The notes under the pieces are model-generated. The model ran no database searches. It was given only the letters and a program-made list of their open reading frames with translations, and was not told the origin of the DNA. Shown in pieces: positions 96 to 11,315 of a stretch of DNA of 40,884 nt (its first letter is position 1; the number at the start of each line of letters is the position of its first letter). Source of the DNA: Bacteroides mediterraneensis. Lineage in GTDB: Bacteria > Bacteroidota > Bacteroidia > Bacteroidales > Bacteroidaceae. Position numbers and translations under genes: made by a program. The stretch is taken from the NCBI RefSeq assembly GCF_016900355.1, contig NZ_JACJKA010000029.1, forward strand, positions 1 through 40,884. The letters run 5' to 3'.

Positions 96-329
96 TCAAT
101 ACCTGTAGTTTAACGAATGCTTACCTTCATTGCCTGCCTGGATCAACTCTTCAGGAATACCTTCCACTTCTACAGGTACAACTTTCTTCTGTGTCTTCTT
201 GAACCAGTCATAGAATGCCGTGTAAGGAATGTTGTTGCTAATACAGAATGAGTTGATGGAAACTCCTTTGGGTTCGCCCTCGGTCTTGTAGAGGAACCAC
301 AGTCTTTCAAAATCTTTTTCGCTAAACAT
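96..329 (-). pseudogene. IS66-type accessory ORF remnant, copy A
   Basis: This 77-residue ORF looks like the small helix-turn-helix accessory protein (OrfA/TnpA-like) of IS66-family elements: an N-terminal FSEKDFERLW segment, a mid-region matching the SFC...TAFYDWFKK pattern of these proteins, then a short basic-acidic tail. It is near-identical to the ORF at 382-603 for about 63 residues, after which the two C-termini diverge. No IS66 tnpB or transposase (tnpC) lies beside it, so it is a decayed piece of an insertion sequence rather than a mobile element. The family call rests on motif resemblance only. Confidence 0.55.
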
Positions 330-743: not shown

Positions 744-2417
744 TTACTGAATATGCGGTAAATCAACTCCAATTCTAAGGGCATGGTTAAAAATCTTATT
801 TACAATGCGCTGGGCATAAAAATCTTTTAGCCCCCCAATATACTCTAATTGTATATCCTTATTTTCTATTTTAACAGTAATTTCCTCCTCAACATTAAAT
901 ACATTATTTTCTATATAAATTGTCAAGAAGTTATCATTCCATTTAATAGCCTGATTTTCTGAAATGATAGAATAACAATTTTCTTTCTCAATATTTCGTA
1001 AAGCAGTGCTAAGTTTAACGTCATAAGTATTTCCATATGTAAAAGCATAGTTATTATGAATCTTCTTAGGATGTAAACAATCACAGCTTTGTGAAACACA
1101 AATAATATACTCCTCAAACTCAGCATTCCCAGATCCATCTTTAGAAATAGGATACAATTTCGTCTTCAATCTAAAAATATCTCCAGTTTTTATTTGGTGG
1201 CGCTCTTGATTTGATAATTTCTTTTTATCCACAAATGTTATAATCTTATTAAAGAGAGCTAATTCACAATCTTTTACTATATCTTTTTTCTCGTCATCAC
1301 CTCTCCCAAAAAGGCTTTCTATTTTTCCGGTATCTATGTATGTCCTCATTGATTCCGCTATATCCTCTTTAATACACAACACAAGAAACTCAATGAGGTT
1401 ATCAATATTTTTTTCTTCATAAGACTCCCAATGATGTAATAACATTCGATCAGTTATTCCACCTAAACCTTTTCCACCTATGCCTAATTCTTCAGAAAGT
1501 ATATTCTTCAACATTAAAGACAACAACAATGTACGTTGATTTGGAATATTACAAATAGCATCTGTTACTTTTCCATAAACATCATCAGGAGTTATCTCTT
1601 TCTTCAAGACAAAAATGACAGTCCCATTAATTAAAAGATAATTTCTACCCAATATATGGACAGAGTATTTTTTTTCATCCACCCTGTGTAATATCTCTAA
1701 ATTTTTACTAACAATCTCATAATATGTCAATAAAATATTTAAATCATCTTTTACTATATCCCTCAACTTCTTACAACATTCACGACTATCCTCTTGAGGG
1801 AACAAACTATAAATATAATGCTTAAATTCTTTAATTATACAGTCTTGCTCTTCTTTAGGACTTAGCGTAAAAGCTGAAACAATATCATTAAGTTTTTTCA
1901 TAAAATCAGTTTCAACATCTTCTGCTTCTGATTTTTCCTCAACTATTCCCAATACTTCAAAAAATTTATCATTAATTTCCGCCTTGAGTTCATCAGATGT
2001 TTTCCTAATACAAAAATAAGCGTATATATTTAATAAAATATTATAATCATCCTGTTCGTTAGTATATATTGCTACCCATCTTATATACTTATTAGCAACT
2101 GCATTATCTAAAATCTTTAATGTGCTCTCATGCTTTATTCGGAAAGTAGCATCTAATTCCCAATCAAGAATCATCAAGTCTTTATGATTCAGCAAAAAGT
2201 CTTTATCGTTATCAAATCCATCATAACCTCGAAATTTATATATGTCAAGATCACATTTTCCATCTTTCCTAAATGAAATATACAATTCTTTTGAATCATC
2301 AAAATATTTCCGATTTTCAGGGATGTCACAATATGGAGACTCATATTGATCATCTATACAAATAGCTGAATTAATTGCATTATATATAACAGCTTTTTTA
2401 TCTTCTGTACTTATCAT
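744..2417 (-). CDS. Receiver-like protein of the methyltransferase/GHKL operon
   Basis: Last gene of a three-gene minus-strand operon; its ATG is only 5 nt after the stop of the double-GHKL gene. The N-terminus resembles a response-regulator receiver: an acidic pair after a hydrophobic strand (CIDDQY, D22-D23), a candidate phosphoacceptor in LMILDWELD (D85) and a strand ending in a hydroxyl residue (VAIYTN, T119). The stretch between the acidic pair and D85 is longer than in a canonical receiver, and no clear conserved lysine is visible, so it is a divergent receiver. Residues about 140-420 are mostly helical with no domain I recognise. Near the C-terminus is a short motif CVSQSCDCLHPKK of unknown role. 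There is no DNA-binding helix-turn-helix, so an effector or protein-interaction role is more likely than transcription control. The codons are visibly AT-rich. Function is inferred from the partner gene. Confidence 0.65.
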   Translation of the reverse strand: MISTEDKKAVIYNAINSAICIDDQYESPYCDIPENRKYFDDSKELYISFRKDGKCDLDIYKFRGYDGFDNDKDFLLNHKDLMILDWELDATFRIKHESTLKILDNAVANKYIRWVAIYTNEQDDYNILLNIYAYFCIRKTSDELKAEINDKFFEVLGIVEEKSEAEDVETDFMKKLNDIVSAFTLSPKEEQDCIIKEFKHYIYSLFPQEDSRECCKKLRDIVKDDLNILLTYYEIVSKNLEILHRVDEKKYSVHILGRNYLLINGTVIFVLKKEITPDDVYGKVTDAICNIPNQRTLLLSLMLKNILSEELGIGGKGLGGITDRMLLHHWESYEEKNIDNLIEFLVLCIKEDIAESMRTYIDTGKIESLFGRGDDEKKDIVKDCELALFNKIITFVDKKKLSNQERHQIKTGDIFRLKTKLYPISKDGSGNAEFEEYIICVSQSCDCLHPKKIHNNYAFTYGNTYDVKLSTALRNIEKENCYSIISENQAIKWNDNFLTIYIENNVFNVEEEITVKIENKDIQLEYIGGLKDFYAQRIVNKIFNHALRIGVDLPHIQ

Positions 2418-2422
2418 AATTG

Positions 2423-5305
2423 TTATTTTTTATATGGCCTAATGACAAAACAAGCTCCATTTAACTTATTATACTCTTTGTCATTACTTGCGATAATATC
2501 CAGACCTATAGAATTCAAATTTCTTCTAGCTAAGTATAACCCTATTCCACGCCCATTAGATTTTCTTGTAAAAAATAAAGTAAATATATCTTCTAATAAA
2601 TTGTCAGCTATTTTTTCACCATTATTCATTACAAGAATTTCTTCATTTTCAGTACAATATTCAATATATATCCTACGCTCAGAAACAGGAATCAGCCAAT
2701 ACAATGCATTATTTATTATATTGATAAATGTCGAATAAATCACCGATTCAAATGTAAAAAAAGTATAATTCTTAAAATCATCACTAGCATCAAAATTGAC
2801 CTCCAAATCTCTAATTTTAGAAGCAAAAAACAATTTTAGAGATTCTAACAAATTCAAACCTGTAAAAGTCTTTTTTTGCCTACGTGACATTCTATATAGA
2901 GGCTGTAACATTTTATAATTAGCCTCCATATGCTCAAATGCCACTTTTAATTGACTATATTGATTTGATATTTCAGAATGATTTGCTGCATAATCTCCTA
3001 AATAACGAATAGATGCAGCCATTTGGGAATGGAGCACATTTAATTCATGATCTATAATTTCAGCAGAAATACCTAGTTGAGCCAATTCATCAGTAGCCTC
3101 CAACTTTTCTTCTAATTTTTTATGTTGTTCTTTATACCATCCAATTAAGACGTCATCATCTATATCAAAACTCAGATTTTCAATATGTGTAACAAATGAT
3201 GAATATCTTGAATCAATTTGTGCTAAAATAGATTCTTTACTTGACAATATACACTCTATAGCCTTTTCATACTCTTCTTTTGTGTTTAAGGTACTAATCA
3301 TATTTGAAATCTCTTCTTTAAATGAGTCACTATATGATTTACCTTCCTCCATAAAATTGTTACGAATATTTTCAAATGCTAAAGATGTACGTTTCACATA
3401 TGAATTGACAGTAGTTGTTATTTCTCTTAATACTGCAAGATAATTGTTTTCATAATCCTTTCTAAGATTCTCAACATCAAATTTTTGCCTTACTTTTATT
3501 ATTTCATTATCACAAGCAATCAATGACTTTATAATCTGATTATATACTCCAGTATATTCTGTATATTTTTTCTCCTGAATTGAACTTAATTTTATACGCG
3601 ACGGCTTTTGTATTTTCAAACTTCGAAGCTGTTCTTTCTTTTGAGAAAGCAACTTCGCTAAATCCTGGTACTCATTATAAGTTGTTTCCAAAGATTTAGA
3701 TTTCAATTCTAATTGGAGATGGAGTTCTATTATCTCATTCTGTAACTCAAGAATTTTTACTTCATTAGCTTTCAAGTCTGAATTTAACTTTGCTTTTGTC
3801 TGCTTAGCTTTTTTCTTTTCAGCCTCTAGAACTTTTTCATTTTTTCGAGCAATCTCATCCATTTGGATAGAATGAGCTGTGACATCATCCTTAGAGGAAG
3901 CAAAAAAGTTCTTAGCTATATCAGTAAAGAAATCTATTAAATTCTTTTTGAATTCTTTATAAGCTTTATTTTCTATAAGCCCTTCCCTCCCAGCTTTATC
4001 TGTAAGAGTTTTATTTTTCTCTCGCGTAATAGCTATATATCCATACATATTACGATGACTAAAGAAATAGTGCCCTGCACTTTTAGATCTACGTTCCTCA
4101 AATTTAAGGAAATCGTAATCTGTTCTACCATAAGGTAGGACCCTAAAATTATCTCTATAAATATATAGTCCTCCAAACTTCTTGGTTTTTTCATCCATGA
4201 CGTCATATTCTTCAGGGGACAGCAATGAATATTTTTGACGTCCTTCAATTTCACCAAGTTCTATTTCAAATGGGCCATAAGGTGTTTTACCTGGCAATCG
4301 AACAGGTCTAAATTTATAAGAAAAGGTCTGTTTATAAACTCGCACAATACCATCAAAAACGCCATTTTCATTAAAAGATCCCTTTATATAATGGTCAGCC
4401 TTTTCAAAATCACTATGATCAAAAAAATCGCGAATTATATCATACTTACCATTTTCGTCCCTAATATTAAAAGCTGTATTAAAATCAGGCTTTTGCTGCA
4501 TAAACAAATTATATATTCCACTGAGAGAACGTTTAAGTTCAGACAGTGTAGAATTATCATCATCATTAGCATTGTAATAAGCCAAATCTAAAAGTTGTTC
4601 ATCAGGTTGAAAGATGAGAAAGCGTGTTCCATGTTTATCTTGCGAAAGAAACAAATCCTCTATTTCTTTTTCTATTACATTAGGAACTTTAACGGAAGTA
4701 ACACTATCTACAATATTTTGATGCAAACTTTCTTGTTCACTCCAAGCACTGATATTATTTTGAAAGTTACTCAAAAATTCCAATTTCATAATTTGAAGAT
4801 TATACCGAAATTGTTCAATATTTCTAAACTCAGAAAGAGGAATATTTACATCATCAACAAATAGATTATAATTTTCAAGAATTCGCCAATCCATTAAAAG
4901 CATTTGACAAGGCTCTTCTTTTTTTTTGGTTAACATCAACATTGGAGAACCTAAATATGCTACAGACAAACGACCAATACCTTTCTCACCCATAGGTGTT
5001 CTTGGGCTTAAATTAAAACGTTGTTCATCCGTTAAAAAAGTTTTTCCTCTTGATTTCGAATCTGTGCCTAAAACAATCCACTTTGTTAATATGTCATTTT
5101 GCGTCATACCGAAACCATCATCCGACAAACTAAAAATAGGAGATTCAACGTCTGCATAACCGGGTAAATACAAATCACAATTTAACTCTTTTGCATAAGC
5201 ATCATATCCATTCTTCCATAACTCAGAAATAGCTGTTGGCAAATCTGCAATCTGACCTTTTCCCAATAAATCAACAGCTCTCGCTTTTGTTCTAAATTGT
5301 GCCAT
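2423..5305 (-). CDS. MORC-like GHKL ATPase fused to histidine-kinase-like module
   Basis: A 960-residue protein with two ATP-binding folds of the GHKL superfamily. The N-terminal one resembles prokaryotic MORC/MutL-like ATPases: N box ISELWKNGYDA (E28, N32, D35), G1 motif DDGFGM (62-67), G2 motif GEKGIGRLS (106-114), then a later segment GGLYIYRDNFRVLPYG (378-393) like the second ATPase subdomain of HSP90/MORC proteins. Residues about 480-740 are charged and probably coiled coil. The C-terminus resembles a histidine kinase: an H-box-like IIDHELNVL with H753, N box INIINNAL (861-868), a G1 region VMNNGE with Asn where Asp is usual (N894), and G2 GRGIGLYLARRNL (918-930). The start overlaps the methyltransferase stop by 14 nt. 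Family knowledge: MORC-like GHKL proteins occur in prokaryotic restriction-modification neighbourhoods. I infer ATP-driven DNA or complex remodelling coupled to a phosphorelay with the downstream receiver-like protein. Confidence 0.8.
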   Translation of the reverse strand: MAQFRTKARAVDLLGKGQIADLPTAISELWKNGYDAYAKELNCDLYLPGYADVESPIFSLSDDGFGMTQNDILTKWIVLGTDSKSRGKTFLTDEQRFNLSPRTPMGEKGIGRLSVAYLGSPMLMLTKKKEEPCQMLLMDWRILENYNLFVDDVNIPLSEFRNIEQFRYNLQIMKLEFLSNFQNNISAWSEQESLHQNIVDSVTSVKVPNVIEKEIEDLFLSQDKHGTRFLIFQPDEQLLDLAYYNANDDDNSTLSELKRSLSGIYNLFMQQKPDFNTAFNIRDENGKYDIIRDFFDHSDFEKADHYIKGSFNENGVFDGIVRVYKQTFSYKFRPVRLPGKTPYGPFEIELGEIEGRQKYSLLSPEEYDVMDEKTKKFGGLYIYRDNFRVLPYGRTDYDFLKFEERRSKSAGHYFFSHRNMYGYIAITREKNKTLTDKAGREGLIENKAYKEFKKNLIDFFTDIAKNFFASSKDDVTAHSIQMDEIARKNEKVLEAEKKKAKQTKAKLNSDLKANEVKILELQNEIIELHLQLELKSKSLETTYNEYQDLAKLLSQKKEQLRSLKIQKPSRIKLSSIQEKKYTEYTGVYNQIIKSLIACDNEIIKVRQKFDVENLRKDYENNYLAVLREITTTVNSYVKRTSLAFENIRNNFMEEGKSYSDSFKEEISNMISTLNTKEEYEKAIECILSSKESILAQIDSRYSSFVTHIENLSFDIDDDVLIGWYKEQHKKLEEKLEATDELAQLGISAEIIDHELNVLHSQMAASIRYLGDYAANHSEISNQYSQLKVAFEHMEANYKMLQPLYRMSRRQKKTFTGLNLLESLKLFFASKIRDLEVNFDASDDFKNYTFFTFESVIYSTFINIINNALYWLIPVSERRIYIEYCTENEEILVMNNGEKIADNLLEDIFTLFFTRKSNGRGIGLYLARRNLNSIGLDIIASNDKEYNKLNGACFVIRPYKK

Positions 5306-6359
5306 TGTACTTTTCTTTTAATTCATATAATAAAATTCCTAATCTTCTTGCATATTCAGGAGGTACCGCATTTCCTATAATTCTTGCATTGGCTAGAATA
5401 CTATTTGCACAAAACTTATAATCTTTAGGAAAAGTCTGTAACGTAGCACCTTCACGTATAGATAATCCTCTATTCTCCGTTGGATGTGCAAAACGTCCAC
5501 TTGTAATTTTTACAAAATTTGTGGTAATAGTAGAAGAAGGTTTATCCCAACGCAGTCTACCGTATACATCAGTAAAGCTATGATCTTTACCTACATAACA
5601 TTTAAGTTGAAGAGCCGGGTCATCCTTCCACACCAGGCGTGAACCTCCATTCAAAGGAGTTATTTCCAACCTTTTAACATTGATTGGAGCTAATTTTGAA
5701 GCTGTATGCATAAATTCTGTTTCATCTTTATGTCCAGCTTCAATACATGGGAATCCATTCTCCGGGCCTATAAATTCGCATAATAAAGATGGCTTTTCAT
5801 CTGGTTTAGGTAGCTCCACATCACCTAATCTTGAAGCAATAAGGGAAAATCTCTTCCTTGTTTGTGGAACCCCATAATAGCACATATTTACAATTTCAAA
5901 TTTGTATAAATAATTTTTACTTTTAAGGAACTGTTCAAATTCAGGGAAAACGCTATCTGATTTAGAAAGAATGCCAGGAACATTTTCTACTAAAACAAAT
6001 CCTGGATTATAATAATCAACAAACCTTATGAATTCTTTTAATAAATCCTTACTACCTCTTGATTTATTTTTACTTGTATTTATTATGCTGTAATACTGAC
6101 AGGGACTACACCCTATCAATACTAAATTATCATCATTTCGTTGAATAGAAAAATGCTTTTCAAAATAATCAACTTCCAACTGTTTTATATCTGAATATAC
6201 AAACTTTGAAGTTGGGTTATTTATTTCATAAGTTTCTTTACATTCTTTAGCAAAGTCAATGCCGGCAATTACATCAACACCCGATTGGCGAAGACCATAC
6301 GTCATACCGCCTCCTCCACAAAAAAAATCAATTGCTTTTAATGAACAGCTATTCTTCAT
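5292..6359 (-). CDS. DNA (cytosine-5-)-methyltransferase
   Basis: Complete 355-residue C5 cytosine methyltransferase. Motif I (SAM binding) is DFFCGGGGMTYGL near residue 11; the catalytic loop is GCSPCQYYS with Cys87; the ENV motif is VENVP (E125); motif VIII is QTRKRFSLIA; motif IX/X ends with GNAVPPEYARRLG. The target-recognition region between motifs VIII and IX is short, as expected for a small enzyme. All catalytic motifs look intact. It is first of three tightly packed genes, with a Bacteroides -7 box about 25 nt upstream of the ATG. It is the only methyltransferase in the window, so it may protect DNA both from whatever the GHKL/receiver pair controls and from the McrB/LlaJI nuclease on the other strand. 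Vsr nearby fits a 5mC enzyme, since Vsr repairs T:G mismatches left by 5mC deamination. Confidence 0.93.
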   Translation of the reverse strand: MKNSCSLKAIDFFCGGGGMTYGLRQSGVDVIAGIDFAKECKETYEINNPTSKFVYSDIKQLEVDYFEKHFSIQRNDDNLVLIGCSPCQYYSIINTSKNKSRGSKDLLKEFIRFVDYYNPGFVLVENVPGILSKSDSVFPEFEQFLKSKNYLYKFEIVNMCYYGVPQTRKRFSLIASRLGDVELPKPDEKPSLLCEFIGPENGFPCIEAGHKDETEFMHTASKLAPINVKRLEITPLNGGSRLVWKDDPALQLKCYVGKDHSFTDVYGRLRWDKPSSTITTNFVKITSGRFAHPTENRGLSIREGATLQTFPKDYKFCANSILANARIIGNAVPPEYARRLGILLYELKEKYNGTI

Positions 6360-6526: not shown

Positions 6527-7138
6527 TCAACCAACCAAACTGTCATATATACTCAAATACACCGGCTGAAACTTCGTCCCCGCATTCTTCAACACCCCTT
6601 TCTGCACCAGCTCCCGAATCACCCGCGTAGCCTTCGACTGGTTGAAACCCGTGAGCCGTTCAAAGTCGCGGCGTTGCAGGAAAGAATGAGTCTTGAAGAA
6701 CTCCGCCAACTTCTGTTGCACTTCTTCTTCGTCCAACTTGGCAGAATGATGTGCCTCGTCCACCTCCCTCTCCAGATACACACTCCGGAAACGGTCAATC
6801 AAGTCTTTGTCGGGCGTGAACTTGATACTTCTCACCTCTACATCGTCGTCCTTCACATACTTCGGGTTAATGTCCGGCGCACATTTCAGGCTCAGACTGA
6901 AATACCCGATGCCGTCCAAGTGCACAGCGTACCCGTTGCTCAGGTACTCATAAAGTTCATCGTTCAGGGCCGTGATGACGGCAGCCACATCCGCCGGGGC
7001 CACGGTACATTTCCTGTGTATCGCCTCCCGGATTTCGCGGGTGGTCACCACATCCTTTGTAATCACTTTTGCATGCAGCTTCGGGGCAGCAATTCCGTCC
7101 TTTACCGGATTCTCAAACAAGTCAAATTTAATAGCCAT
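6527..7138 (-). CDS. HU-like DNA-binding protein with winged-helix tail
   Basis: 203 residues. The N-terminal 120 or so resemble the Bacteroides-type HU family: a helix-rich start (TTREIREAIH..., APADVAAVITALNDELYEYLSNG) followed by a beta-arm section DGIGYFSLSL. The remaining 70 residues look like a winged helix: the helix pair RRDFERLTGFNQSKATRVIRELV, then a hydrophobic wing. Such proteins bind DNA and bend it; the added winged helix suggests sequence-specific regulation. It lies directly upstream of the methyltransferase operon on the same strand and diverges from the McrB/LlaJI operon, with the 22-bp palindromic array between the two start regions. That position makes it a candidate regulator of both arms, which is inference. 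Confidence 0.75.
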   Translation of the reverse strand: MAIKFDLFENPVKDGIAAPKLHAKVITKDVVTTREIREAIHRKCTVAPADVAAVITALNDELYEYLSNGYAVHLDGIGYFSLSLKCAPDINPKYVKDDDVEVRSIKFTPDKDLIDRFRSVYLEREVDEAHHSAKLDEEEVQQKLAEFFKTHSFLQRRDFERLTGFNQSKATRVIRELVQKGVLKNAGTKFQPVYLSIYDSLVG

Positions 7139-7417: not shown

Positions 7418-9187
7418 ATGTCACAATATACACCACTCCACAAGAACGATTCATCCGAAAACGGACAAATACGAATAATAGATGAAGACAGGCTTTGCTA
7501 TCTTGTAGAGTCTACAAGTAAAGGAGCATACGGTTTGCGCACTATATCAAAATCTCTCCTGAAAGAATATATCGACTATTTTGAGAAACACCCTGATGCT
7601 TCACCTACTGATGCTCGTAATGCCCTGTCTGGACTAACCCAAATTGATAAGTTTGAATATGGATATACTTCCACATTGACATTAATGGCCAAAATGGCTT
7701 TAGGAAAGGAGAAAGTCATCAATACTGCAACCAACAACAGAGTACCGCACAAAGACAAAAAGCCACACCAGATTATCTTTTACGGTGCTCCGGGTACAGG
7801 TAAGTCATACACCATTAATGAAACAACCAAGGATGAAAGCGTTATCCGTACCACATTCCATCCAGACAGTGATTATTCCACATTTGTCGGTGCCTACAAA
7901 CCTACGACCATCCAAGTAACGATGCGTGACGTAGCTGGTCATAAGATTATCGAAGGAGGAGAAGAAGTCAAGGAAGACCGGATTGTATATGAATTTGTCA
8001 ATCAGGCTTTTCTTCAAGCCTACATACAGGCATGGAAATTCTATGCAGAAACGGCTGAGGACGCAGAACCTCAAAAGCAATATCTCATTATCGAAGAAAT
8101 CAACAGAGGTAATTGCGCCCAAGTATTCGGCGATTTGTTTCAACTTCTTGACCGAAATTCTACAGGATTCTCTGACTACCCCATCTATACAGACACCGAC
8201 ATGAAAAAGCAGCTTTTCAAAGCGTTCAATGGGCTTTCCATTCCTCAGTCGGAACGAATCAATAACTTATACAACGGGCGACAGATTACAGAACAAGTGC
8301 TGAAAGGAGAAATTCTGCTTTTGCCGAACAATCTTTATATATGGTCAACCATGAACACCAGCGACCAGTCACTCTTCCCTGTGGATTCAGCTTTCAAACG
8401 CCGCTGGGAATGGCAGTACATGCCTATAGGAAAAGGTTATGATGATAATGGAAACGAGCTGAACTGGAAAATCAGTGTAGGTACTAACGAATACGACTGG
8501 TGGTCATTCATCGAAAAAATCAATCTTCAGATTGGCTCAACCACTAATTCAGAAGACAAAAAACTAGGTTTTTTCTTCTGCAAAGCCGAAAACGGCTATA
8601 TCAGTGCAGAAACTTTTGTGGGAAAAGTCATCTTTTATCTATGGAATGATGTATTCAAGGATTATGGATTCGACGGAACCATCTTCAAGGATACAGACGG
8701 AGGTACACTTTCTTTTGACAAGTTCTATAAGGCTGACAGAAGCGGTAAAGCTATTGTGCAGAATGAGAAGATTGACTTATTCCTGAGCAATCTGGGTGTT
8801 GAGGTTTCCAACAATGACCTTGAAGTAGATGCAGAAGAGAACGATGATGAGGGAATTGATAAAAATGGGAATAGCAGGCTGAAAGTTCGATTCCCAGATG
8901 GAACTGAGATTGTCGGAAAAACTCGTTTTGATGCCTATCTCAATACCATAAAGAAGATTGGAATGACACAAATAGCACCGATAATTCCAGATTTGAAATA
9001 TTCACGTTTAGGCTGTCCAATAATAAGCTCCAACAAATATGAGAAAATAGAAAATAATACTGGAAAATATTCATACATTGAATCTGATGGTTTCTATTTC
9101 ATAAAAGGAATGAATGGAAAAGCAATGTGCAATATTTTAAAGGCTATATCTAACAAATTAGGCCTTAACCTAAAAGTCGAATACTGA
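7418..9187 (+). CDS. McrB-like AAA+ GTPase (LlaJI-type restriction subunit)
   Basis: 589 residues. Walker A is GAPGTGKS (123-130). The McrB-type Walker B/signature is YLIIEEINRGNCAQVFGDL (from 222), and the sensor region is WSTMNTSDQSLFPVDSAFKRRW, matching the TMNTaD...VD.A..RRF pattern of McrB. The N-terminal 110 residues are a small helical module with a YGYTSTLTLMAKM segment typical of LlaJI-type McrB relatives rather than the DNA-binding domain of E. coli McrB. McrB-family GTPases translocate on DNA and activate a partner nuclease. The stop overlaps the start of the next ORF (TGATG), so translation is probably coupled. First gene of a plus-strand operon with the LlaJI-like nuclease and vsr. 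Confidence 0.88.
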   Translation: MSQYTPLHKNDSSENGQIRIIDEDRLCYLVESTSKGAYGLRTISKSLLKEYIDYFEKHPDASPTDARNALSGLTQIDKFEYGYTSTLTLMAKMALGKEKVINTATNNRVPHKDKKPHQIIFYGAPGTGKSYTINETTKDESVIRTTFHPDSDYSTFVGAYKPTTIQVTMRDVAGHKIIEGGEEVKEDRIVYEFVNQAFLQAYIQAWKFYAETAEDAEPQKQYLIIEEINRGNCAQVFGDLFQLLDRNSTGFSDYPIYTDTDMKKQLFKAFNGLSIPQSERINNLYNGRQITEQVLKGEILLLPNNLYIWSTMNTSDQSLFPVDSAFKRRWEWQYMPIGKGYDDNGNELNWKISVGTNEYDWWSFIEKINLQIGSTTNSEDKKLGFFFCKAENGYISAETFVGKVIFYLWNDVFKDYGFDGTIFKDTDGGTLSFDKFYKADRSGKAIVQNEKIDLFLSNLGVEVSNNDLEVDAEENDDEGIDKNGNSRLKVRFPDGTEIVGKTRFDAYLNTIKKIGMTQIAPIIPDLKYSRLGCPIISSNKYEKIENNTGKYSYIESDGFYFIKGMNGKAMCNILKAISNKLGLNLKVEY

Positions 9188-9660
9188 TGAGAATTATCAT
9201 AGAAGGACATAAATATCTTGCGGCAAGCGTAAAAGACATTCTCCATGGCATTGATGCCTTGGAAAATGTGGAGGGCTACGTGGTTCTGAATTACGTGGGT
9301 TATTTTTACAATACCCAACTGCACGACTGCGTATTTATCTTGCCCAAGGTTCTTCTGGAAGACATAGATGGGAAAGAAATGGTTTTCGGTAAATATAAGC
9401 CGGAGGACATCATTCATCTTGATAAAAACACCCAGCTTACCCAGAAGGAAAAGGACTTCATTTATGAGTTTTCCGTATGGATTTACCGCACGATTGATGT
9501 ATTCAGAACAGATCGAAACAACCAGACGGACATCGTATATCACAAAAAGATTATTCAAATAGGAAAAGGCAGTCGCAGGTTAAGCAACACGTTCCTGGAC
9601 ATACTGCTCTCGCTTATCCAATTCAACAAGAACAACCGAAACTTTTTTTCTTCATCTTGA
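9187..9660 (+). CDS. N-terminal piece of LlaJI-type endonuclease (frameshifted)
   Basis: 157 residues starting in the 1-nt overlap with the mcrB-like stop. It has no complete domain alone: a strand-rich segment (VLNYVGYFYNTQLHDCVFILPKV) and a helix (LSNTFLDILLSLIQFNKNN), followed by FF and then an out-of-frame tail SSS. Reading one base back at the T7 run (9643-9649) would continue as FFFFILKNLHSGYNKINW, joining it smoothly to the 552-residue ORF downstream. I therefore read it as the amino end of a single roughly 709-residue nuclease subunit that is broken by a missing T, or expressed by slippage. Confidence 0.7.
   Translation: MRIIIEGHKYLAASVKDILHGIDALENVEGYVVLNYVGYFYNTQLHDCVFILPKVLLEDIDGKEMVFGKYKPEDIIHLDKNTQLTQKEKDFIYEFSVWIYRTIDVFRTDRNNQTDIVYHKKIIQIGKGSRRLSNTFLDILLSLIQFNKNNRNFFSSS
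9643..9649 (+). other. T7 run at the frameshift junction
   Basis: Seven Ts follow AAC. The upstream frame reads N-F-F-S-S-S-stop, and the downstream frame is -1 relative to it. Eight Ts would restore one continuous ORF. The context C TTT TTT is not a classical -1 slippery heptamer, so an indel, a sequencing error or transcriptional slippage are all more likely than programmed ribosomal frameshifting. Confidence 0.75.
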
Positions 9661-11315
9661 AAAACCTGCATTCAGGATACAACAAGATAAACTGGACACG
9701 TACCATAGGTACAACCACAGCCATCGTTCAAAACAATCGTCCTGTATACCTGAATCCGGTCAACAAAAAAAGGCAGATAAACTTTGACGAGGAACTTCTG
9801 ATTATATTTTTCTCCATCCTGAACTACATCGGTGACCATTACGGATTTGCCAAAGAAATAGACTGCCACTTTAATCTGATCAAGGGGAAACAGTTTGAAA
9901 CATACTTGAACGGAATCGGTAAAACACGCCTGCTGCAAATCAAATACAAATATTTCTCCGACAAGGCACTGGAATTATGGAATCTTTGCTATGCCTTTTT
10001 TGATGCGGCAAGACAGGTACAGATAAATACGGATTTGCAGGAATACCTGCTGGTAAAGAATTTCAACATCGTTTTCGAAGCGATTATTGATGAACTTATC
10101 GGTGACAAGAATATTCCTGACGGACTGAAGGAGCAGGAAGACGGCAAGTTGGTAGACCACATGTACACCTACAAGAGTCTGACAACTACCGAGGAACAGC
10201 CTATCTACTACATAGGTGATTCTAAATATTACAAGAGAGGCAATGTTATAGGTCGCCACTCTGTGTACAAACAGTTCACTTATGCACGCAATGTGATTCA
10301 ATGGAACCTAAACCTCTTCATGAATGGCGAGGACGAGAAAGTCAACCTGTCCAAAGCAAAAGGTGTCTCCAAACTGCGGGATGACCAAACTGAAGGTTAT
10401 AACATCATTCCAAACTTCTTTATCAGTGCCCGTCTGAATGAGGAACTAAACTACAAAGAAGAGTTGCAAATCACTGACAAACAGCACACTTATTTCTGTA
10501 ACAAGCAATTTGACAACAGACTGTTCGACCGCGACACCTTGCTTGTATGCCATTATGACGTGAACTTTCTTTATGTGGTTTCTTTGTACGCCCGAAACAA
10601 TACCCTACAAAAAGATTCATGGAAAGCCGCAGTCAGAGAGAAATTCCGACAGGAAATACAGAAAATGCTAGAAGATAATTTCCAGTTCCACGCCATGAAA
10701 GCTCGTAGCGGAGTAAACGCAGCATCCTATATCAAAGAGCACTTCCAGGAATTGCTCGGAAAGATTTATACTCCCTATCCAGAAAAAGACATTTATTCTC
10801 TGGCTCTCAGCAAAGACTTTCCAGATGAAAACAGGATTCTCCTGGATAAATTGGATGAATATTTTGTCATTCAGGAATGTAAAATGGGAGAAAATCCGAG
10901 ACCGATGTTTGAACAGTATGATTCGGAAACACATAGCGCAATTCCAACGGAAATGGTAACCTCTGTAAAAAATGTGTTTACAGGACTTATCCGTGTCAAG
11001 GATGAGAATTATAAAACTTTCCGCACCCATCAGGCCCAACTATACACGATGGAAAAAATTCCGCCAACTAATCTGATTGAAGTCAAATACTTCCTGCCTA
11101 TGGTGAGCGGAAAAATTGACGGCTTCTATCAAATAGAGAAACTACAGTTCGGCAGTTACAAAGACAAAGAAGGTAATACACAACCTTGCCTGAAGTTCAA
11201 GCTGGGGAAATATATTCATATCGGAGATACCTGGAAATCTATTTATGAGATAATGCGCCCGGGAGAGGTTATCTCCATTGAGGATGTAATCAAGATGTAT
11301 AATTACATAAAATAG
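9657..11315 (+). CDS. LlaJI-type restriction endonuclease, main part
   Basis: As written the ORF could only begin at TTG 9657, inside the stop of the upstream piece. Continuity of sequence suggests it is the body of the protein begun at 9187. The segment HSGYNKINWTRTI resembles the GxINWxKTI region of LlaJI endonucleases. FEAIIDELIGD followed by YYIGDSKYYK (Asp188, Lys190 in this ORF's numbering) fits a PD-(D/E)XK nuclease core. A C-terminal region of about 110 residues (from IRVKDENYKTF) is a separate small beta-rich domain I do not recognise. Family knowledge: LlaJI-type systems pair a McrB-like GTPase with this nuclease and cytosine methyltransferases. No methyltransferase lies on this strand. 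Twelve nt separate it from vsr. Confidence 0.78.
   Translation: MKNLHSGYNKINWTRTIGTTTAIVQNNRPVYLNPVNKKRQINFDEELLIIFFSILNYIGDHYGFAKEIDCHFNLIKGKQFETYLNGIGKTRLLQIKYKYFSDKALELWNLCYAFFDAARQVQINTDLQEYLLVKNFNIVFEAIIDELIGDKNIPDGLKEQEDGKLVDHMYTYKSLTTTEEQPIYYIGDSKYYKRGNVIGRHSVYKQFTYARNVIQWNLNLFMNGEDEKVNLSKAKGVSKLRDDQTEGYNIIPNFFISARLNEELNYKEELQITDKQHTYFCNKQFDNRLFDRDTLLVCHYDVNFLYVVSLYARNNTLQKDSWKAAVREKFRQEIQKMLEDNFQFHAMKARSGVNAASYIKEHFQELLGKIYTPYPEKDIYSLALSKDFPDENRILLDKLDEYFVIQECKMGENPRPMFEQYDSETHSAIPTEMVTSVKNVFTGLIRVKDENYKTFRTHQAQLYTMEKIPPTNLIEVKYFLPMVSGKIDGFYQIEKLQFGSYKDKEGNTQPCLKFKLGKYIHIGDTWKSIYEIMRPGEVISIEDVIKMYNYIK

What the first reader, a model, noticed from the sequence alone, without database searches (positions are those of the whole stretch)
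744..6359. Methyltransferase / double-GHKL / receiver operon: a phosphorelay-like defence system
Seen: three genes with a 14-nt overlap and a 5-nt gap encode a complete C5 methyltransferase, a MORC-like ATPase with a histidine-kinase-like tail, and a receiver-like protein. They are AT-rich and sit in a defence island. Known: MORC-like GHKL proteins occur in restriction-modification neighbourhoods. Inferred: the ATPase may sense unmodified or foreign DNA and pass a phosphoryl or conformational signal to the receiver-like protein, the likely effector. No nuclease is visible in the trio, so the effector is unknown. I know of no named defence system with exactly this trio.
Basis: partly seen in the sequence, partly recalled or inferred. 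Interest (0 to 1): 0.85.

Follow-up and report, generated by a model that had tools for sequence, protein, structure and literature searches.

The report
Phosphorelay switch guarding DNA modification
Three adjacent genes, for a DNA-methylating enzyme, a kinase-like protein with two ATPase domains and a receiver protein with a predicted toxin-like tail, recur together across distant bacteria and likely form a signal-triggered antiviral switch; the gene trio is already published, but how it would act is a new prediction.

Summary
In detail: C5 methyltransferase, 960-aa double-ATPase kinase-like protein and 557-aa receiver protein lie as stated. The trio is not new: Bellieny-Rabelo 2021 (PMC8011034) described it as HEF_HK/Response_reg_2 two-component-like elements beside C5 methylases, without a tested function. 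Added here: (1) of 82 loci with a complete kinase, 80 have the receiver next door (2 end at a contig edge) and 73 the methylase directly upstream; His753 (84/84 rows) and Asp85 (77/77) do not vary. (2) Models show a receiver split by a helical insert, then a tail barrel like the MazF/CcdB/Kid toxin fold, by fold only, not by sequence. (3) An operon-like downstream gene, present in 34 of 71 loci, changes type, often a nuclease, between close trios. (4) Distant kinase-receiver pairs sit in or near phosphorothioate (Ssp, Dnd/Pbe-like) loci. Best reading: a portable phosphorelay that likely watches the DNA mark and fires the receiver's tail, a linked nuclease, or both. Phosphotransfer, toxicity and phage defence are untested. 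In the window a frame-split LlaJI/McrBC-like cassette with Vsr lies divergently beside the trio; whether they cooperate is open.

The parts
5292..6359 (-). C5-cytosine DNA methyltransferase, 355 aa, the checked catalytic motifs present
   Evidence: Pfam DNA_methylase 1.5e-47; PCQ, EN, QxRxR residues invariant in 75 rows
2423..5305 (-). HK-like protein, 960 aa: MORC-type ATPase, middle region, HEF_HK and HATPase_c
4868..5236 (-). N-terminal GHKL ATPase (aa 24-146), MORC-like in type; E28, N32, D62 invariant
   Evidence: HATPase_c_3 4.4e-11; 84 of 84 rows
2879..3079 (-). HEF_HK phosphoacceptor-type domain (aa 743-809) with His753
   Evidence: 9.6e-23; H753 84 of 84 rows; place
2438..2737 (-). 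C-terminal histidine-kinase type ATPase (aa 857-956)
   Evidence: HATPase_c 8.4e-9
744..2417 (-). RR-like protein, 557 aa: split receiver plus helical and barrel output region
   Evidence: Response_reg_2 2.3e-18; models
1548..2378 (-). Predicted receiver fold (aa 14-290) with D22, D23, D85, T119, K273
1671..2003 (-). Predicted helical insert splitting the receiver before its last strand (about aa 139-249)
   Evidence: 89-170 residues between T119 and K273 in 75 proteins
771..1208 (-). Output barrel (aa about 404-549), predicted MazF/CcdB/Kid fold, with C440, C445, D446, R537
6527..7138 (-). HU-HIG protein upstream of the methylase; probably not part of the system
   Evidence: Pfam HU-HIG 1.9e-32
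7418..9187 (+). McrB-like AAA ATPase, divergent neighbour, possible restriction partner
   Evidence: AAA_5 1.5e-6; PADLOC REase_II 1.7e-43
9187..11315 (+). LlaJI/McrBC-like partner subunit split in two frames (9187-9660 and 9657-11315); near relatives are one protein of about 709 aa
11328..11864 (+). Vsr mismatch endonuclease
   Evidence: Pfam 3.3e-30, NCBIfam 2.2e-42

Best explanation
The three genes encode a C5 methyltransferase, a double-ATPase histidine-kinase-like protein and a split-receiver protein with a predicted MazF/CcdB-fold tail, and they likely work as a phosphorelay-type switch that would release that tail as a growth-arresting effector when the DNA mark is wrong or foreign DNA appears. 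Shown by sequence: gene order, domains, and invariance or near-invariance of the key phosphotransfer and ATPase residues. Shown only by predicted structure: the insert that splits the receiver and the toxin-like barrel. Inferred: that the MORC-type ATPase senses DNA, that His753 phosphorylates Asp85, that this frees the barrel, and that the barrel harms the cell or the phage. A linked nuclease, where present, would be a second, exchangeable effector arm.
Confidence: 0.4

Rival explanations
1. The relay is a control arm of restriction: the receiver's tail is only a docking module and the phosphorylated RR would switch on the linked, exchangeable nuclease.
For: 34 of 71 loci have a same-strand gene within 60 nt of RR; scanned representatives are HNH types, NOV_C, AAA_15 ATPase, McrB-like AAA with DUF2357/PDDEXK_7, and Vsr by similarity to the window's; convergent HNH_2 or HNH genes in others. 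The fourth-gene class changes 27 times on the HK tree among 45 labelled loci in 12 classes (200 shuffles give 29-36). L030/L034: HK 89%, RR 88%, methylase 45%, unrelated downstream genes, DNA similarity confined to HK+RR.
Against: 37 of 71 loci lack such a gene at that distance. If RR only bound the nuclease, RR should change with it, yet L030/L034 keep RR at 88% across the swap.
Confidence: 0.28
2. An ordinary two-component regulator that adjusts expression of a restriction-modification system, as the 2021 authors speculated.
For: Conserved His and Asp; proposed in PMC8011034.
Against: No known DNA-binding output domain in the window's RR or among the families listed for 51 output regions (25 of 43 listed); the tail model resembles a toxin fold; the kinase carries a second, MORC-type ATPase.
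Confidence: 0.17
3. A MORC-like ATP-driven DNA clamp in which kinase and receiver parts serve only as dimer and docking surfaces, with no phosphotransfer.
For: N-terminal ATPase motifs invariant; paraMORCs were proposed as DNA loopers in restriction systems (PMC2292703, passages).
Against: H753, D85, D22 and K273 would not need near-complete invariance.
Confidence: 0.08
4. The trio's methylase is the protecting enzyme for the divergent McrB/LlaJI-like cassette and Vsr, so the window holds one composite restriction system.
For: The cassette has a C5 methylase within two genes upstream in 15 of 23 fetched loci, and in the window the only C5 methylase is the trio's. In L055 a methylase, McrB-like, RE_LlaJI, Mrr, Vsr, YhcG, HK and RR lie in a row.
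Against: None of the 23 cassette loci holds an HK or RR hit. A match to the cassette's 552-aa part is in 21 of 101 family genomes, an RR in 1 of 101. The genome has another C5 methylase on contig C11. The second subunit is frame-split in the window and does not hit Pfam RE_LlaJI.
Confidence: 0.2

Closest known systems
HEF_HK / Response_reg_2 two-component-like elements (Bellieny-Rabelo 2021, PMC8011034)
   Same: Same two Pfam domains, same order, C5 methylase upstream, Vsr and HNH_2 nearby
   Different: The paper reported no other known domain in the receiver and no tested mechanism; the split receiver, MazF/CcdB-fold tail, fourth-gene exchange and phosphorothioate relatives are added here
MORC / paraMORC GHKL ATPases of restriction systems (Iyer 2008, PMC2292703, passages)
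   Same: N-terminal GHKL ATPase in restriction neighbourhoods with C5 methylases and Vsr
   Different: Here a complete histidine-kinase core follows and a receiver partner is adjacent
MazF/Kid/CcdB toxins
   Same: Predicted fold of the RR tail
   Different: No sequence support; fused to a receiver; recalled MazF catalytic Arg not conserved; no antitoxin looked for
Ssp and Dnd/Pbe phosphorothioate systems
   Same: Distant HK-RR relatives lie in or near such loci; two papers note histidine kinases beside Ssp genes (PMC7464106, PMC12421847, passages only)
   Different: The window's system carries a methylase, not sulfur-transfer genes
PrrC guarded by EcoprrI (recalled, no call)
   Same: A toxin guarding a restriction system
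   Different: No phosphorelay there
[not shown]
   Same: C5 methylase linked to MORC-type ATPase

Membership tests
HEF_HK / Response_reg_2 elements | Response_reg_2 receiver with acidic pair, Asp, Thr, Lys | tested here: met
   67.4 bits vs cut-off 27; residues (D23 is E in 32 and T119 is S in 15 of 77 rows)
HEF_HK / Response_reg_2 elements | HATPase_c_3 + HEF_HK + HATPase_c in one protein, His conserved | tested here: met
HEF_HK / Response_reg_2 elements | The two genes adjacent, C5 methylase upstream | tested here: met
   window coordinates; relatives
Two-component system | Phosphotransfer from His to Asp | not testable with these tools
   residues only
Type II restriction-modification system | Methyltransferase with catalytic motifs | tested here: met
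Type II restriction-modification system | Cognate endonuclease in the operon | tested here: not met
   no nuclease domain in the three genes; no ORF over 77 aa in the 743 bases to the contig end; what lies beyond the contig is unknown, and the divergent cassette's kinship is open
MazF/PemK/CcdB toxin | Fold | tested here: inconclusive
   [not shown]
MazF/PemK toxin | Sequence profile of the family | tested here: not met
   hhalign probability 0.1; no PemK_toxin hit in the window's RR or genome
MazF toxin | Ribonuclease activity | not testable with these tools
   none
LlaJI-type restriction cassette (neighbour) | McrB-like AAA subunit plus LlaJI second subunit | tested here: inconclusive
   AAA_5 met; PF09563 not hit by the window's second gene or five relatives; C5 methylase neighbours in 15 of 23 relatives
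Named defence system in PADLOC | Model for HK or RR | tested here: not met
   0 families for both at E up to 1
Detocs | Its kinase, phosphotransfer and nucleotidase trio (recalled) | not tested
   considered from memory only

The most novel reading that the evidence does not exclude
A portable phosphorelay-armed suicide guard: one kinase that reads the chemical state of DNA through a MORC-type ATPase and fires a receiver-caged MazF/CcdB-fold toxin, plugged by evolution into chemically unrelated DNA-marking systems (C5 methylation, Ssp and Dnd/Pbe-like phosphorothioation), where it stands in for or backs up the restriction nuclease.
Probability: 0.3. Interest if true: 0.88.

Novelty: new member of a known kind. 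Interest (0 to 1): 0.6.

Why it matters
The trio has been in print since 2021 and I found no tested function for it. If the receiver tail is a caged toxin, this would be a two-component system that triggers cell arrest directly rather than transcription, and it would link bacterial phosphorelays to DNA-mark surveillance. The phosphorothioate relatives could explain an Ssp system reported without its nuclease but near a histidine kinase (PMC12421847, passage). A complete trio in E. coli NCTC86 makes it directly testable in laboratory E. coli.

Tried and rejected
Naming a system through PADLOC, Pfam and NCBIfam: PADLOC matched only the methylase of the three, and the other two matched only the published HK/RR domains and general kinase models. 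Searching solved structures by sequence with RR gave nothing and with the A1 and A3 profiles nothing convincing. Foldseek with the whole RR model was uninformative; the tail alone was needed. A single-sequence scan of genome contigs found no relative; the alignment scan did. Sequence support for MazF homology was sought and not found. A fourth nuclease gene downstream in the window was sought: 96-603 holds only two near-identical short ORFs that look like a transposase fragment (recalled resemblance, not searched) before the contig ends. The idea that the whole family shares one fixed nuclease was rejected. tblastn of HK gave 83 plasmid records of which 2 cover 80% or more, and 3 phage records with none. 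A search for the L200-type kinase at E 1e-40 found it only in its own genome of 178 in its class. Literature: ten searches; in the listings and passages I saw, none shows a phage test of this trio; the library lacks most subscription papers and bioRxiv. DefensePredictor (PMC13092281, three legend passages) lists predicted, unvalidated systems with HATPase and REC domains; whether they are this trio is unknown.

Full report
OBSERVATION. Pfam, over curated cut-offs, gives DNA_methylase; HATPase_c_3, HEF_HK and HATPase_c in one protein; and Response_reg_2. The first 6 kb are about 28-37% GC per kb against 44-61% beyond 12 kb. PADLOC matches only the methylase of the three.

ALREADY IN PRINT. Bellieny-Rabelo and others, 2021 (PMC8011034; abstract, introduction, results and discussion read; methods and supplements not) defined both domains, found 91.6% linkage in 644 regions, and noted C5 methylases upstream and Vsr and HNH_2 genes nearby. 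They proposed a two-component-like system linked to restriction-modification and to paraMORC ATPases, and reported the receiver domain in proteins lacking any other known domain. So the trio is a published kind; I found no tested function.

CONSERVATION. A profile scan of GTDB genomes returned 96 relatives of the HK-like protein, 80 kept. After dropping two duplicates and four short HK frames, and adding the window and seven loci found through RR, 82 loci hold a complete HK: RR is directly downstream in 80 and the contig ends in the other 2; the methylase is directly upstream on the same strand in 73, the contig ends in 1, and 8 lack it there. Five of those 8 have a C5 methylase on the opposite strand within three genes downstream. 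Organisms named in the records include Bacteroidota, Gammaproteobacteria, Aminicenantes, Acidobacteria, Spirochaetes and Firmicutes. In the alignments (84 HK, 77 RR, 75 methylase rows, two duplicate genomes included) E28, N32 and D62 of the MORC-type ATPase and His753 are invariant; Asp85 and Asp22 are invariant; D23 is D or E in 76 of 77, T119 is T or S in all, K273 is kept in 76 of 77; the methylase PCQ Cys in 75 of 75. Both ATPase modules and the His-Asp pair therefore look under strong constraint. Distances correlate (HK-RR 0.91, HK-methylase 0.78, RR-methylase 0.71, 68 loci, no correction for shared descent).

LIMITS OF THAT READING. Profile-profile comparison with PemK/MazF sequences gives probability 0.1, the same as controls. 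The window's RR and genome have no PemK_toxin hit, and none is among the 25 listed of 43 weak Pfam families for the 51 output regions. The arginine recalled as catalytic in MazF is not conserved here. So the claim is a predicted fold, not membership, and the tail may bind something rather than cut RNA.

EXCHANGEABLE FOURTH GENE. Of 71 loci with at least 700 nt and a further ORF after RR, 34 have a same-strand gene within 60 nt and 37 do not; some of the 37 have one further off or convergent. One scanned representative per cluster gives HNH_2, HNH-DUF3427, HNH_5, NOV_C, AAA_15 (labelled OLD-like), McrB-like AAA with DUF2357/PDDEXK_7, a HEPN-like gene below the Pfam cut-off, a pair with kinase and ORC-CDC6-like domains, and an unknown 553-aa protein; Vsr was found by similarity to the window's. 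On the HK tree the class changes 27 times among 45 labelled loci in 12 classes; 200 label shuffles give 29-36, so the classes are only weakly clustered (FastTree, labels by hand). In L030/L034 HK is 89% and RR 88% identical while the methylase is 45% and the downstream genes are unrelated; DNA similarity spans only HK and RR. In L043/L074 HK is 83% and methylase 82% identical but RR 35%. Of 48 locus pairs with HK at least 75% identical, RR is under 50% in 10 and the methylase in 1. The genes appear to move as modules.

WINDOW NEIGHBOURS. Divergent from the trio are a McrB-like AAA gene, a gene split between 9187-9660 and 9657-11315, and Vsr. Near relatives of the split gene are single proteins of about 709 aa; in the five compared, their two parts match the two ORFs, so the window copy carries a frameshift, real or from assembly; it was not mended. 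A match to its 552-aa part is in 21 of 101 family genomes and an RR in 1 of 101. A C5 methylase lies within two genes upstream in 15 of 23 fetched copies, none of which has HK or RR hits. Hence the cassette is LlaJI-like and usually has its own methylase; in the window the only one is the trio's, but another lies on contig C11.

BEYOND METHYLATION. A search of 395 phylum genomes with the output-domain profile hit 12. Of five regions opened, L197 and the second pair of L199 are ordinary trios with a methylase; L199's first pair lies beside a contig-edge fragment matching type II methylases; L198, L200 and L201 are HK-RR pairs without a C5 methylase. L200 lies between SspC and SspD with SspF following; L198 and L201 lie near an ATPase whose best PADLOC models are PbeC and DndD. 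With the L200 receiver as query, 9 plasmids matched; the 4 opened all show the pair within about 7 kb of an Ssp-like set (cysteine desulfurase or class V aminotransferase, DUF4007 or an unnamed protein, a large protein, PAPS reductase; the last lies outside the view in Devosia) (equating these products with SspA-D is from knowledge and the passage). All 7 kinases match the family profile including its N-terminal ATPase; the output profile matches 4 of 7 receivers, the GD..CD motif 5 of 7, an Asp-acceptor-like strand 7 of 7. HEF_HK is borderline, below cut-off or absent in those scanned, and the receivers have no Pfam receiver hit, so they are distant kin at most. Passages in two papers fit: histidine kinase genes next to SspE in 211 Acinetobacter strains (PMC7464106), and an Acinetobacter Ssp system lacking its nuclease in a region with a two-component system (PMC12421847). 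A reappraisal of phosphorothioate systems (PMC10853773) has no occurrence of receiver, GHKL, MORC, histidine-kinase, MazF or two-component.

A TESTABLE COPY. 205 of 5,426 E. coli genomes match a short HK stretch (107 nt at about 82% in the ten rows shown). The two opened, NCTC86 and an O55:H7 strain, both carry the whole trio plus a 'phosphorothioated DNA-binding restriction endonuclease' near a MobH relaxase gene. NCTC86 and a Pantoea plasmid trio keep H753, D85, K273, C445 and D446, but not D413 or R537, and E107 reads Q.

MECHANISM. Committed reading: the MORC-type ATPase end likely senses DNA state, the kinase end would pass phosphate from His753 to Asp85, and the split receiver would then free its toxin-like tail; a linked nuclease would be a second arm. 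The first parts rest on conservation, the tail on a predicted fold, the trigger and outcome on inference. The main rival is that the tail docks the nuclease. Both are separable by the bare-trio and point-mutant tests listed.

VERDICT. Real, strongly conserved, already described as a gene association; the split receiver, toxin-fold tail, fourth-gene exchange and phosphorothioate relatives give it a testable function.

Noticed in passing
window 9187-9660 and 9657-11315: A gene that is one protein of about 709 aa in near relatives is split in two frames here, next to a T-rich run; intact copies exist elsewhere.
   Followed up: partly
window 96-329 and 382-603: Two near-identical short ORFs (77 and 73 aa) after the receiver gene, resembling a transposase fragment (recalled); the contig ends there.
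   Followed up: no
L043 vs L074, L061 vs L081: Kinases 79-83% identical carry receivers only 35-39% identical; DNA similarity fades about 80 to 360 bases past the HK gene's end, as if receivers were swapped.
   Followed up: partly
L200:3752-8102, L198:6699-10990, L201:6725-10992: Distant kinase-receiver pairs in or near Ssp and Dnd/Pbe-like phosphorothioate loci; a systematic survey is lacking.
   Followed up: partly
L055 (Lachnospiraceae contig ONHB01000011.1) 2092-14526: Methylase, McrB-like, RE_LlaJI, Mrr, Vsr, YhcG nuclease, HK and RR in a row on one strand.
   Followed up: partly
G000 contig C11:1066-2268: A second C5 methyltransferase in the same genome, neighbours not read.
   Followed up: no
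L067:14552-19320 and L064: A 387-405-aa protein plus a 1,200-aa protein directly downstream of the receiver; the L067 copy has kinase and ORC-CDC6-like domains; possible unusual effector.
   Followed up: no
plasmid search: 41 of 83 plasmid records with a match are Campylobacter; the listed ones are annotated as (sensor) histidine kinase and match only residues 3-481 of the 960-aa protein.
   Followed up: no
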